A DNA stretch of 64,000 nucleotides from positions 1 through 64,000 of IMG/VR virus record IMGVR_UViG_3300042301_001937, one strand, 5' to 3'. Shown piece by piece: positions 2,633 through 9,496 of the stretch. Within the stretch, counting starts at the first letter, position 1, and each line of letters opens with the position of its first letter. Made by a program: the position numbers and the translations under genes. The notes beneath the pieces are model-generated. The model saw only the letters and a program-made list of their open reading frames with translations. It searched no databases and had not been told where the DNA came from. This DNA is from a virus.

Positions 2633-3423
2633 AAATAGTTTGGGCATGTAAAATTGGGTGAATTGCTGGAAACCTAACCCTTGAAAGACAGGTATGGCAA
2701 TCAGCAGCTAAGCTATGGAAAACTATAAAAGTACATAGAAAGTTCAACGCATAGATAATGAGCAAGTTAAGCAATAATTTATCCACGAGTGCCCAACATT
2801 GAATATATTCTATTATCTTTGCTATATGGAAGATGTAGAAATTTGGAAACCTGTTGTAGGTTTTGAACAATTGTATGAAGTGTCAAATTTTGGAAGAATA
2901 AAAACTTTACCAAAAAAAGGATTTAAAAAAATAGTTATTAGAAAAACAGGTACAGATGTTAGAAATGGGTATGTGACAATAACATTAAGAAAAAACAATA
3001 TTCCTATTACTAAAAGAATACATAGTTTAGTTGTAGAAGCTTTTTTAAATACTAAAACGACAAGAAAACTGGTGTGTAATCATAAAGATGGTAATAAAAC
3101 AAATAATAAATTATCTAATCTAGAAATTATTACACAAAAAGAAAATGTACTTCATGCAATAGCTATAGGTAAAACTAAAATACCTTTAAAAGATGAAAGA
3201 TATAATTCAAAAATTAAAGAAAAAGATTTTCAACTTTTAAAAGATTTATTTAAACAAGGTTTAACTTCTAAAGCTATTGCAAAACAATTTAATGTTTGTC
3301 CTACAACAATAAGCCGAATAAGAAAAGGTGAAAGAAGACCTTATTTATTCAATGATGATATATGCTGAACTTATAGGAAACTATAAGAAGTAAAGGATAA
3401 AAAGCCTTTACGGTAACAAATTG
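2633..3423 (+). ncRNA. Group I self-splicing intron in the recT-like gene
   Basis: Boundaries come from three agreeing signs. Exon bases ATGCCT (2627-2632) pair with GGGCAT (2642-2647), with the expected U.G wobble at the 5' splice site (P1). Exon 2 bases AGAC (3424-3427) pair with GTTT (2638-2641) as P10. The intron ends in G (3423). Between them lie group I core-like stretches: AATTGCTGGAAACC (P4 side), AATCAGCAGCTAAGC (P4/P6) and GTTCAACGCATAG (P7 side). Removing 791 bases restores the RecT reading frame exactly. The core precedes the endonuclease ORF. Confidence 0.85.
2826..3368 (+). CDS. NUMOD4/HNH homing endonuclease inside the intron
   Basis: A 180-residue product from ATG 2826. The order is a NUMOD4-like start (EIWKPVVGFEQLYEVSNFGR), an HNH nuclease core with CNHKDGNKTNNKLSNLE, and a C-terminal helix-turn-helix (GLTSKAIAKQFNVCPTTISR) likely used for target recognition. 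This is the usual build of phage intron-borne HNH enzymes. It would cut intronless recT-like alleles and so spread the intron. The longer frame from TTG 2799 is less likely, because ATG 2826 gives the canonical N-terminus. TATCTTTG, a Bacteroidota -7-like box, lies four bases upstream of the ATG. Confidence 0.85.
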   Translation: MEDVEIWKPVVGFEQLYEVSNFGRIKTLPKKGFKKIVIRKTGTDVRNGYVTITLRKNNIPITKRIHSLVVEAFLNTKTTRKLVCNHKDGNKTNNKLSNLEIITQKENVLHAIAIGKTKIPLKDERYNSKIKEKDFQLLKDLFKQGLTSKAIAKQFNVCPTTISRIRKGERRPYLFNDDIC

Positions 3424-3579
3424 AGACACATGATGTATGCTAGATGTTTAGCTTTAGGTGCCCAACGTATTGCACCAGACAAAATTCTAGGTCTATATAC
3501 AGTTGAAGAAATGGTAGATATCACCCCTACCAATAACGTTAAAATTAACGAAGAAGGTGAAGTAACAATTTTAAATTAA
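3424..3579 (+). CDS. RecT-like ssDNA annealing protein, exon 2
   Basis: The last 51 codons plus stop of the annealing protein. It has no start codon of its own at its 5' end, which supports it being an exon. RHMMYARCLALGAQ followed by RIAPDKILGLYTVEEM matches the C-terminal core of RecT-type proteins (usually RxLxxRAxxxxxRxxxPDxLxGxYTxEE). The total coding length of both exons (591 bases) is divisible by three. It ends with TAA 17 bases before the next gene. Confidence 0.75.
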   Translation, partial: RHMMYARCLALGAQRIAPDKILGLYTVEEMVDITPTNNVKINEEGEVTILN

Positions 3580-3595
3580 ATTAAAAACCAATAAC

Positions 3596-3865
3596 ATGAC
3601 AACAGAAAGAACACAAGTTCAAGTGACAAAATCATCGTTTACTGAAGCAGTAAATGCAGGTTTGACAAAATCAGAATTAGCTGAAAAGTTTCAAATTTCT
3701 AAATTAGCAGTAGCAAAGTTTGCTAAAGATTTAGGATTGAAAGTAACTATCAAACGTAAAGGTAATGCTAAATACATTTTAGTAGACGATAGTGATAATA
3801 ATATCGAAAAGTCTGTAATGGACCATTCAGAAAATTTAGAAGTATCTAATCATTCATCATTTTAA
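3596..3865 (+). CDS. Small helix-turn-helix protein
   Basis: An 89-residue protein. Residues 15-50 (EAVNAGLTKSELAEKFQIS, then KLAVAKFAKDLGLK) form a clear helix-turn-helix, and the C-terminal 30 residues are acidic and probably disordered. It sits between the recT-like gene and the ssb-like gene with short A-rich spacers. It could be a transcription regulator or a small DNA-binding replication factor. Confidence 0.6.
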   Translation: MTTERTQVQVTKSSFTEAVNAGLTKSELAEKFQISKLAVAKFAKDLGLKVTIKRKGNAKYILVDDSDNNIEKSVMDHSENLEVSNHSSF

Positions 3866-5408: not shown

Positions 5409-5759
5409 ATGGCAAAAAACACAGAATACACAAACATATTTGCTAAGATGCTACAGCATCATAACTATACAATTGTGCCTATTTTACGTGAACTTAATTT
5501 AAGAACTGTAAAAGTAAGAAATACTAAAATAATGCGTTTGCAAGAAATTCTAGAAACTGAAGATAAAGTAGTTCTTGCAGTAGATGTATTTGCTGAATAT
5601 TTAGTAACACATCATATTATTTTACCTTTTTTAAATCAAGATCAATTAAATACTGCTTATGCATTAATAAGAACAGCTGATAAAGGAAATGTTCTTATAG
5701 GTATAAATTGTATTTACAATTTAATTGAAGAATATAAAACATCATGCAACAAAACTTAA
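5409..5759 (+). CDS. Hypothetical protein upstream of the metallopeptidase-VWA gene
   Basis: A 116-residue, mostly helical protein with no recognised family. It is the first gene after the terminator and overlaps exon 1 of the metallopeptidase-VWA gene by 16 bases, so it is probably translated together with that gene. No membrane segment or cysteine cluster is visible. Confidence 0.6.
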   Translation: MAKNTEYTNIFAKMLQHHNYTIVPILRELNLRTVKVRNTKIMRLQEILETEDKVVLAVDVFAEYLVTHHIILPFLNQDQLNTAYALIRTADKGNVLIGINCIYNLIEEYKTSCNKT

Positions 5760-5958
5760 TTTTAGATCTTAATAGGATCACTAAAAAGATTCTTATTAAC
5801 GACATGTTTTATGGTCTGTTTTTAACTACCATAAACAAAATAGAATCTAAAGAAATACCTTTGGCAGCAGTATCTGTAAACAAATCTACAATGGATTTTG
5901 CTTTAATGATTAATCCAGATGAATGGTTTAAATATTCAGATGAAGTAAAATATGGGGT
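5744..5958 (+). CDS. Metallopeptidase-VWA protein, exon 1
   Basis: The first 71 codons plus two bases. The segment INPDEWFKYSDEVKYG matches the strand and turn that precede the zinc site in DUF2201-type putative metallopeptidases. An intron follows GGGGT at 5958, and without splicing the frame ends at TAA 5981-5983. Joined to 7037-7994 it gives 390 residues, and the junction codon becomes GTA (Val), producing VLKHEALHLCMFH with the HExxH zinc motif at residues 75-79. Confidence 0.8.
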
Positions 5959-6121
5959 TAATAGTAGCTCCCTTATACAGTAATGTATATGTAAAACGTG
6001 TTAAATTGACAGGGAAGCCCTTAGAGTCTTTTATACTAAACTTATGTAGTGATATATAAGTGGTGAGAATAATTACCTCAGTATAGTAAAAAATAAAAGA
6101 ATTGGGTAATCTGCATCGAAG

Positions 6122-6152
6122 TTGGTTTTTAATTAAAAATGGTGTATATTTG
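6122..6152 (+). promoter_or_regulatory. Candidate Bacteroidota-type promoter inside the intron
   Basis: TTG at 6122-6124 and TATATTTG at 6145-6152 are separated by 20 bases, matching the Bacteroides consensus TTG-N19-21-TAnnTTTG. Transcription would start at or next to ATG 6158 of the endonuclease, giving an almost leaderless message. AT-rich sequence makes a chance match possible. Confidence 0.4.
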
Positions 6153-6157
6153 CATGT

Positions 6158-7000
6158 ATGGATACATTTAAATATAAAAACATTACAGATTTAGAAGAAT
6201 TTAAACAAGATTATGATGATTTAACTATGGAAGACATAGTTAAAAAATATAATTTAAATCCAAAAACAATATGGAGTTACGTTAAAAAATTAAAGATAAA
6301 TAGACCTACAGGATCAAAAAGAACAAATAAAGTAAATGACTTTTATTTTTCATCTTTAAATGAATGTGCTAACAAATATTATATTTTAGGATTAATTTAT
6401 ACAGACGGTAATTTACCTATTAAAAATAAAAATTCTTTTATACTTTCTAATATAGATTTAAAACTATTAGAAGATATAAAAAAAGAATTAAATTTTAGTG
6501 GTAAAATTACAATTGAATATCATAAAAAATTCAATAAATACATTTATAAATTACAAATTACATCAGCACAAATTAGAAAAGATTTAGAAAATTTTGGATT
6601 AATTCCTAATAAAACTATGACTTTAAAATTTCCAAATATACCAGAAATGTATGTAAAAGATTTTATTAGAGGGTTATGGGATGGAGATGGTGGAGTTATT
6701 ACTCCTTTATCTAAACAAAAAACATCTAAATTATTATGTTCTTATTTTGTATGTGCTAATTATGATTTTATAAATACTGTATTAAGTTTTTTACCAGTAA
6801 AAAAGAAAACTATTCAAACTAAAAAAAGAAAAACAAATTTATATTCTATTTTTTTTAGAGGCTTTGATAGTTTGGCTATTAAAAAATTTTTATATTACGA
6901 TAATTGCTTATGCATGCAACGTAAAAAAGATTTATTTTTTAGTTATAAACCAAAACGTTCAACGACTATAATACACTATCCTAATGGGATAAAGGAATAG
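6158..7000 (+). CDS. LAGLIDADG homing endonuclease inside the intron
   Basis: A 280-residue protein. Residues 10-50 hold a helix-turn-helix (LTMEDIVKKYNLNPKTIWSY). Then come two LAGLIDADG-type helices: NKYYILGLIYTDGNL near residue 75 and VKDFIRGLWDGDGGVI near residue 170, each ending in an acidic metal ligand. Two motifs in one chain indicate a monomeric enzyme. It would promote homing of the intron into intronless alleles. Its last roughly 15 codons overlap the intron's P7-side sequence, so this stretch serves both protein and ribozyme. Confidence 0.85.
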   Translation: MDTFKYKNITDLEEFKQDYDDLTMEDIVKKYNLNPKTIWSYVKKLKINRPTGSKRTNKVNDFYFSSLNECANKYYILGLIYTDGNLPIKNKNSFILSNIDLKLLEDIKKELNFSGKITIEYHKKFNKYIYKLQITSAQIRKDLENFGLIPNKTMTLKFPNIPEMYVKDFIRGLWDGDGGVITPLSKQKTSKLLCSYFVCANYDFINTVLSFLPVKKKTIQTKKRKTNLYSIFFRGFDSLAIKKFLYYDNCLCMQRKKDLFFSYKPKRSTTIIHYPNGIKE

Positions 7001-7036
7001 TCTGATCTTACATGAAAATGTAAGCTAACAAAAATG

Positions 7037-7994
7037 ACTAAAACATGAAGCACTTCATTTGTGCATGTTCCATTTGATTACTTTAGATGACTATCCAAAT
7101 CATAAGATGGATAATTATGCTACTGATATGGAGATTAATCAGTATATACCTAAAGCAAATTTACCAAGTTGGGGTATATTTCTAGATGATATGCAACAAA
7201 AGTATCCTCAGTTAGATTTGTCACCTAAGAAAGGTAGACATCATTATTATCGTGAACTAAATAAATTATCTGAAGAACAGCAAGAAGAAGCTGGTATATC
7301 TGAACAAGCACAACATGCTTGGATAGTTACAGATAAAGACGGTAATGAAGTAGACGGACTTAGTGAAGCAGAACAGAATGCTATTAAAGCACAGGTAGAA
7401 TCTACTATTGAAAGTATAGCACAGGAAATTCAAAAATCTCAAGGTAGTGTACCAAGTGAAATTGAACAGTTAGTCAAGAACTTTGTTAAACCTAAACCTA
7501 AGTTTAATTACCTAAAGTATATTAGAAACTTTGTAGGTAATTCAAATAAGTTTTTTATTAAAACAAGTAAGGTTAAAGAAAATCAAAGATTTCCAGGTCA
7601 ACCTAAGACTGTATTGAAACCAGTAGCTAAGATTTTAGTACTAATTGACGAATCAGGTTCAGTATCTGAAACAGAATTGTATGAATTTCTTAATGAGATT
7701 TACCACTTACAGAAAAAAACAGGTATTGAAATCAGAGCATTTGATACTAAAGTATCTGATATAGTAAAATACAAAGGTAACAATGAATTCCCTAGAACAC
7801 GATGTGGTGGAACTTCATTTACTGCTGCTGTAGATTATTACAATGCTTCTCAATATACTACTTGTATTATTTTTACTGACGGCCATGCAGAAGAACCACC
7901 TAGATGTAACAAGAGATTACTATGGGTAATATCTTCTAATGGTACTGAGTCTAGTATTGAAAATCATTCACAATGGGTAAAAATCCCTAATTAG
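7037..7994 (+). CDS. Metallopeptidase-VWA protein, exon 2
   Basis: It supplies the HEALH zinc motif right after the splice junction and, at the C-terminus, a von Willebrand A domain with a complete MIDAS: DESGS (D276, S278, S280 of the spliced protein), GGTSF and IIFTDGHAE. The linker (about residues 120-200) is Gln/Glu-rich and helical. DUF2201-type proteins combine these two parts and are often encoded beside MoxR-type AAA+ ATPases, as here. The role is likely remodelling or metal-dependent maturation of a target complex, but the target is unknown. Confidence 0.8.
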
Positions 7995-8284: not shown

Positions 8285-9496
8285 ATGGAAAAAGTAACAA
8301 CGTATACACCTAATGAAACATTAGGAATTTTGAAAGACATTATTGCTGCTAATGACAAACTTATGGAACAAGGTAATGTACCTATTTCACTAAGTCTAGT
8401 AGGTACACCTGGTTTGGGTAAAACTACTATTTGCAGAGAATTAGCTAGAGATCTTAATAGAGATTTCTACAAGCTAAACCTAGCACAATTAACAGAACCT
8501 TCAGAATTAATCGGTTACTATAGTAAAGAATACGAAGTAGTAAAAAACAATGAGACAAGATGGGTTACTGAAAATCTATTACCGAAAGCAACAGATGCAG
8601 GTTTTAAATATACCAATAAAACTAGGACTGTACCATGTCCTCCAGATTGGATTGTTAACTTAAAAGATAACGGTATCTTATTATTAGATGACTATAGCAG
8701 AAGTAATACTTTGTTTAGTCAAGCTATTATGGAATTAATTAATGAGCAAACAATGGTAGGTTGGGATCTTAAAGATAAAAAGATTCAAATTATACTAACA
8801 GAAAATCCAGATGACGGTGAATACAATGTATCATCTATGGATAAAGCTCAACAAGATCGTATGATGAGAATCAATATGGTATGGAGTGCACAAGATTGGT
8901 CAGAACGTGCAGAAAAGATCGGCCTTGATGAGAGGTTAATTAACTTTGTATTATGGGCACCTGAATTATTGGAACAGAAGAAAGACCAAGGTATCAGTGC
9001 TAGTGGTAACGTAACTCCAAGGATGATGGATAAGTTCTTTAGCTTAGTATCTACAATAGAAGATTTTGAGAATAATCTAGATAAGATTGCATTATTCGGT
9101 GATATCTCAGTAGGTAAACATATTACAGGGCAGTTGATCAATTTCGTAAATAAGAAATTAGATAAATTACCATCTGTAGAAAAGTTATTGAAAGAATATG
9201 ATTTAGCTACAGCTAAAACTCAATTGACTATTGCTTGTGGTGATTCTGAATCAGATTCTGGTAACTGGAAAGGTGCAACAGCAGCAATCTTAACTACTAG
9301 ATTGTTTAACTACGTAAGACATCACAACAAGAAGTTAAGCAAAGATAACATTAAACAATATCTTGAGTTAATTCTTCATCCATCGTTTTCAGTAGATCAA
9401 AAGTTTTTAATGGTTAAACAAACAGTTTCTTGTGGAAGCAACTTTGCTACAATTTTAGCAGGTGACCCTAGATTCTTAAAATACATGATGTCATGA
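8285..9496 (+). CDS. MoxR/dynein-related AAA+ ATPase
   Basis: A 403-residue AAA+ protein. Walker A is GTPGLGKTT (residues 40-48), Walker B ILLLDDYSR (D135-D136), followed by a sensor-1-type strand IQIILTENPDDG and an arginine-rich stretch (QQDRMMRI). These match the MoxR/AAA_5 branch, whose members work with VWA-domain proteins to insert metals or remodel complexes. The spliced metallopeptidase-VWA protein just upstream is the obvious partner. It overlaps the next gene by four bases (ATGA). Confidence 0.85.
   Translation: MEKVTTYTPNETLGILKDIIAANDKLMEQGNVPISLSLVGTPGLGKTTICRELARDLNRDFYKLNLAQLTEPSELIGYYSKEYEVVKNNETRWVTENLLPKATDAGFKYTNKTRTVPCPPDWIVNLKDNGILLLDDYSRSNTLFSQAIMELINEQTMVGWDLKDKKIQIILTENPDDGEYNVSSMDKAQQDRMMRINMVWSAQDWSERAEKIGLDERLINFVLWAPELLEQKKDQGISASGNVTPRMMDKFFSLVSTIEDFENNLDKIALFGDISVGKHITGQLINFVNKKLDKLPSVEKLLKEYDLATAKTQLTIACGDSESDSGNWKGATAAILTTRLFNYVRHHNKKLSKDNIKQYLELILHPSFSVDQKFLMVKQTVSCGSNFATILAGDPRFLKYMMS

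What the first reader, a model, noticed from the sequence alone, without database searches (positions are those of the whole stretch)
5959..7036. A second group I intron interrupts the metallopeptidase-VWA gene just before its HExxH zinc site
P1 (5954-5958 with 5967-5971), P10 (7037-7040 with 5962-5965) and G7036 agree. Splicing creates VLKHEALH, so the enzyme has its zinc site in the mature frame only after splicing. The intron therefore controls activity of a whole MoxR-VWA set.
Basis: partly seen in the sequence, partly recalled or inferred. Interest (0 to 1): 0.8.

Follow-up and report, generated by a model that had tools for sequence, protein, structure and literature searches.

The report
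Group I intron in phage peptidase gene
A crAss-like bacteriophage carries an ordinary-looking self-splicing intron, with its own homing endonuclease gene, inside a metallopeptidase-VWA gene; the splice points proposed from sequence alone are right, but nothing shows that the intron regulates the gene.

Summary
Window 5959-7036 is a group I intron in a DUF2201-type metallopeptidase-VWA gene (exons 5744-5958 and 7037-7994; 390 aa spliced). Thirteen IMG/VR loci carry the uninterrupted gene through this exact junction, the nearest 80% identical. Four contigs carry an allelic intron at the same site. A distant phage (L037) carries a homologous intron 16 nt further on, inside HExxH itself. With the ORF removed, P1-P9 of three introns align: 97.7% of pair cells are standard and 12 pairs change on both sides (0/500 shuffles as high). 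The intron carries a LAGLIDADG gene in L6 whose 3' end runs through the core and stops inside P7'. The phage is crAss-like by its capsid protein.

"Zinc site in frame only after splicing" is right. "The intron controls activity of the MoxR-VWA set" is unsupported: presence is patchy (nearest relative L014 lacks it), and homing endonucleases typically target active-site codons. This is a new member of a known kind: group I introns abound in some crAss-like groups, and MoxR plus peptidase-vWA pairs are known in phages. Splicing itself was not tested.

The parts
5744..5958 (+). Exon 1 of the metallopeptidase-VWA gene (codons 1-71 and two bases of codon 72)
   Evidence: 67-86% identical to the start of continuous homologues
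5959..7036 (+). Group I intron, 1078 nt
   Evidence: Empty sites in 13 loci, allelic introns in 4 contigs, covarying core
5954..5971 (+). P1: GGGGU 5954-5958 with GCUCC 5967-5971, U.G at the 5' splice site
   Evidence: Identical strands in L008
5962..5965 (+). P10 strand UAGU, pairs with ACUA 7037-7040
   Evidence: Direct reading; weak (3 bp, shifted) in L008, 5 bp in L037
6158..7000 (+). LAGLIDADG endonuclease ORF, 280 aa, in L6; its end overlaps P6', P7, P3', P8, and the stop codon lies in P7'
   Evidence: Pfam LAGLIDADG_3 3.9e-8, PHROG 4645 7e-40
6914..7024 (+). 3' half of the ribozyme core (P6', P7, P3', P8, P7', P9)
   Evidence: Rfam RF00028 24.2 bits; pair counts
7037..7994 (+). Exon 2, beginning A-CTA-AAA-CAT-GAA (VLKHEALH); rest of the peptidase and the VWA domain
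   Evidence: 63-80% identical to continuous homologues; Pfam DUF2201_N and DUF2201 on the spliced protein
7044..7058 (+). HEALH zinc motif, wholly in exon 2
   Evidence: H75, E76 and H79 invariant in alignments
8285..9496 (+). MoxR-type AAA ATPase gene, partner of the peptidase-VWA gene
   Evidence: Pfam AAA_5 5e-11; 90% identical neighbour gene in intronless L001

Best explanation
Window 5959-7036 is a mobile group I intron of a crAss-like phage. After transcription the ribozyme core (P1-P9) removes it at U5958 and G7036 by the usual guanosine-started reaction, joining GGG-GT|A-CTA-AAA-CAT-GAA so that one 390-aa metallopeptidase-VWA protein is made. The LAGLIDADG protein encoded in L6 cuts intronless alleles in the DNA coding for the conserved zinc-motif segment, and repair copies the intron in. 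Shown here by sequence comparison: exact boundaries, restored frame, covarying core, endonuclease family, patchy presence. Inferred from the known families: catalysis of splicing, endonuclease activity, homing. The position beside HExxH is best explained by homing into the most conserved codons, not by regulation.
For: Exact empty sites in 13 loci; allelic intron at the same base in 4 contigs; homologous intron in the same gene of a distant phage, 16 nt downstream; core pairs with 12 double changes; LAGLIDADG_3 above cutoff in all three endonucleases; window groups with intronless L014 at 93/98; literature that homing sites often encode active sites (PMC2988022).
Against: No RNA data and no assay. 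Rfam score is below its gathering threshold. P10 of L008 is short and shifted. Recent transfer is not shown: the synonymous-codon test is not significant once the core-overlapping part is removed.
Confidence: 0.95

Rival explanations
1. Regulatory intron: splicing is conditional and gates production of the active metallopeptidase, so the intron controls the MoxR-VWA set.
For: Without splicing no HExxH protein can be read. The endonuclease frame runs through P6', P7, P3' and P8, so its translation could compete with folding. Some group I introns are domesticated as regulators (PMC3984707).
Against: Intron absent from most relatives with the same genes, including the nearest; no aptamer-like or other regulatory element recognised (Rfam); a selfish element explains all observations.
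Confidence: 0.04
2. No effective splicing: the gene is split or dead, and a VWA-only protein is made from TTG 7059 or ATG 7065.
For: A 309-311 aa open frame follows the motif.
Against: Both exons are conserved at the protein level and the core is intact with compensatory changes; intact LAGLIDADG frame.
Confidence: 0.04
3. Another kind of insertion: an intein or a free-standing endonuclease gene.
For: Rfam does not reach its threshold; LAGLIDADG genes also occur in inteins.
Against: Stops close the reading frame on both sides, which excludes an intein; P3-P9 core, U.G at the 5' site and terminal G in all three introns; exact frame restoration against 13 empty sites.
Confidence: 0.01

Closest known systems
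Group I introns with endonuclease genes in crAss-like phages (Yutin et al. 2021, PMC7886860)
   Same: Phage order, LAGLIDADG-type endonucleases, insertion in conserved core genes
   Different: Host genes named there are MCP, PolB, primase, ATP_43b and others; a MoxR-associated metallopeptidase-VWA gene is not mentioned (the word MoxR is absent)
Group I introns of Jug phages (PMC12363816)
   Same: Many group I introns in essential genes of phages of Bacteroidota; splicing supported by RNA reads for 37 of 76
   Different: Other phage clade and host genes; mostly HNH endonucleases
T4 td/nrdB/nrdD introns (Edgell et al. 2010, PMC2988022)
   Same: Phage group I introns that home by endonuclease cutting; target sites often encode active sites
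   Different: Other endonuclease families, host genes and phages
Phage MoxR plus metallopeptidase-vWA pair (Iyer et al. 2021, PMC7824862)
   Same: Same gene pair: AAA ATPase next to a vWA protein with an N-terminal metallopeptidase domain
   Different: Described in jumbo phages, without an intron mentioned in the passages read

Membership tests
Group I intron | P1 with U.G at the 5' splice site and guanosine as last intron base | tested here: met
   U5958.G5967 and G7036; same in L008 and L037
Group I intron | Conserved core P3-P8 with P7, plus P9 | tested here: met
   97.7% of cells paired, 12 pairs changed on both sides, 0/500 shuffles; only three sequences, structure drawn from them
Group I intron | Score above the Rfam RF00028 gathering threshold | tested here: not met
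   24.2 against 50 bits, 3' half only; core split by an ORF. This is a detection threshold, not a structural feature
Group I intron | P10 pairing of 3' exon with the internal guide | tested here: met
   4 bp in window, 5 bp in L037, only 3 bp with a shift in L008
Group I intron | Exact removal restores the host gene | tested here: met
   13 empty-site homologues
Group I intron | Guanosine-dependent self-splicing | not testable with these tools
   Needs RNA or in vitro assay
LAGLIDADG homing endonuclease | LAGLIDADG motifs and family profile match | tested here: met
   Pfam LAGLIDADG_3 3.9e-8, above cutoff; motifs LGLIYTDGN and RGLWDGDGG conserved in L008
LAGLIDADG homing endonuclease | Cuts the intronless site | not testable with these tools
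   Needs assay; AlphaFold model was poor, pLDDT 46.9
MoxR / metallopeptidase-vWA pair | HExxH metallopeptidase plus VWA domains in one protein, next to a MoxR-type AAA gene | tested here: met
   DUF2201_N 8.6e-7, DUF2201 4.9e-10, AAA_5 5e-11
Regulatory (domesticated) group I intron | Conditional splicing or conserved regulatory element | tested here: inconclusive
   No element recognised and patchy presence; conditional splicing itself cannot be tested here
crAss-like phage (Crassvirales) | Capsid protein related to crAss-like phages | tested here: met
   Major head protein 27-29% identical to crAss002, cr127_1 and others, E to 1e-42

The most novel reading that the evidence does not exclude
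The zinc-motif codons of phage MoxR-associated metallopeptidase-VWA genes are a recurrent intron target (two sites 16 nt apart in distant phages), and splicing there serves as a timing switch for the peptidase during infection, for example through translation of the endonuclease frame across the ribozyme core.
Probability: 0.04. Interest if true: 0.6.

Novelty: new member of a known kind. Interest (0 to 1): 0.25.

Why it matters
It gives the correct protein for a fragmented gene and shows that the metallopeptidase-VWA protein of this crAss-like lineage is intact once spliced. Empty sites, allelic introns and a related intron 16 nt away form a natural series for asking how LAGLIDADG introns settle in active-site codons. 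It does not change what is known about introns in phages.

Tried and rejected
A Bacteroidota-type promoter (TTG-N20-TATATTTG, 6122-6152) before the endonuclease start: the pattern occurs 9 times in the window against 13.6 expected, so not significant, and by eye it is not kept in L008. Recent horizontal transfer from synonymous divergence: endonuclease dS is lower than exon dS (0.57 vs 1.64), but the excess of shared codons is not significant once the part overlapping the core is removed (p=0.17); inconclusive. P1/P10/terminal-G matching as sole proof: rejected, other combinations exist by chance. PDB sequence searches with the endonuclease and peptidase alignments: nothing. AlphaFold model of the endonuclease: too poor to search with. 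A broader profile search found no further intron-bearing alleles. A scan for the 3' core motif found 11 other contigs, none with a match to the peptidase or the endonuclease, so the core motif is generic.

Full report
What was checked. Reading the sequence confirms each position. Joining 5744-5958 to 7037-7994 gives an open frame of 390 aa that matches Pfam DUF2201_N (putative metallopeptidase) and DUF2201 (VWA-like) above their cutoffs. A scan showed that such pairing arithmetic is not unique on its own: other combinations nearby meet similar rules. Comparative evidence was therefore needed.

Empty sites. IMG/VR searches found 13 loci whose gene runs uninterrupted through the proposed junction, for example L001/L014 at 80% identity, with SDEVKYG-VLKHEALHLCMFH identical to the spliced window protein.

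Allelic introns. Four contigs (L008-L011, one intron sequence) carry a 1142-nt insertion at the same nucleotide position, with the same GGGGT exon end, the same GCTCC P1 strand, a terminal G and a 66-67% identical endonuclease. A far more distant phage contig (L037; peptidase 34% identical, followed by a MoxR-type gene) carries a related intron of 1150 nt with a 33% identical endonuclease. It lies in the same gene but 16 nt further on, inside HExxH (HEV|LH), with its own P1 (GGUU/GACC) and a 5-bp P10 (CUUCA/UGAAG).

Ribozyme core. With the ORF removed, the three introns align and share P1 to P9; P9 is capped by a GNRA loop. Of 130 pair cells 97.7% are standard, 12 of 44 pairs change on both sides, and none of 500 shuffles reaches this; slid controls fall to 33-50%. 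Caution: there are only three sequences and the structure was drawn from them. Rfam sees only the 3' half, at 24.2 bits against a cutoff of 50; the ORF in L6, which separates the halves of the core, is the likely cause. I did not assign a subgroup.

The endonuclease. ORF 6158-7000 encodes 280 aa with two LAGLIDADG motifs (Pfam LAGLIDADG_3 3.9e-8, PHROG 4645 7e-40). It reads through P6', P7, P3' and P8, and its UAG stop is part of P7' (read). ORFs that extend into core sequence are known (PMC3984707). Distant relatives in other phages, including crAss-like ones, lie next to pieces of AAA ATPase, Mre11-type and DNA polymerase genes.

Function of the position. In unspliced RNA the exon-1 frame ends at 5983. 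The exon-2 frame has a TGA spanning the 3' splice site (7035-7037), and its first start codon (TTG 7059) comes after HEALH (7044-7058), so no HExxH protein can be read without splicing. The conclusion that the intron controls the MoxR-VWA set is not supported. The protein tree puts the window beside intronless L014 (93/98) and most relatives lack the intron. Homing sites often encode active-site residues, which spreads the element and penalises imprecise loss (PMC2988022). No regulatory element was seen.

Exon fit. The glycine codon just before the splice site is GGG in both intron-bearing alleles and GGT in all 12 intronless loci with glycine there; GGG is 37 of 992 glycine codons in the window genes examined. 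GGG turns a U-U mismatch in P1 into G.U. Co-conversion during homing or selection on P1 could each explain it; two alleles are too few to decide.

Mobility. Patchy presence fits a mobile element, but direction and age of movement are not shown. The endonuclease gene looks synonymously less diverged than the exons (dS 0.57 vs 1.64), yet after control for codon usage and removal of the part overlapping the core the excess is not significant.

Comparison with the known. Dense group I introns and inteins are described for some crAss-like groups (PMC7886860) and introns for Jug phages, with splicing supported there by RNA reads (PMC12363816). The MoxR plus peptidase-vWA pair is described in jumbo phages, with a proposed role in virion assembly (PMC7824862). 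The window's phage is crAss-like by its capsid protein. The finding is a well-supported new member of a known kind, with a precise gene model as its main value. Splicing and endonuclease activity remain inferred.

Noticed in passing
window 2633-3423: A first group I intron interrupts a RecT-like gene (exons 2198-2632 and 3424-3579, 196 aa spliced; P1 AUGCCU/GGGCAU; NUMOD4-HNH endonuclease; Rfam 42.6 bits). Intronless in L001/L014/L019/L021 and others; an 81% identical intron sits at the same site in L018, which lacks the second intron.
   Followed up: partly
L037:2762-3911: Homologous intron in the same gene of a distant phage, 16 nt downstream, splitting HExxH (HEV|LH). Its endonuclease frame has an in-frame TAA (3727-3729), so it may be decaying.
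   Followed up: partly
window 5954-5956: Synonymous GGG codon before the splice site in both intron-bearing alleles, GGT in 12 intronless loci; it improves P1.
   Followed up: partly
window 6998-7000: The endonuclease stop codon UAG is part of the P7 3' strand, and the last codons double as ribozyme core; the L008 and L037 frames end in the same way.
   Followed up: partly
PHROG 1314; phage records such as NC_031039, NC_043027, NC_027381: The metallopeptidase-VWA protein is labelled 'HNH endonuclease' in PHROGs (phrog_1314, E 9.6e-51) and in many records, although Pfam finds DUF2201_N/DUF2201 and no HNH; probably a spread annotation error.
   Followed up: no
window 6122-6152: Bacteroidota-type promoter-like TTG-N20-TATATTTG directly before the endonuclease start; the pattern is not commoner than chance in the window.
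   Followed up: yes
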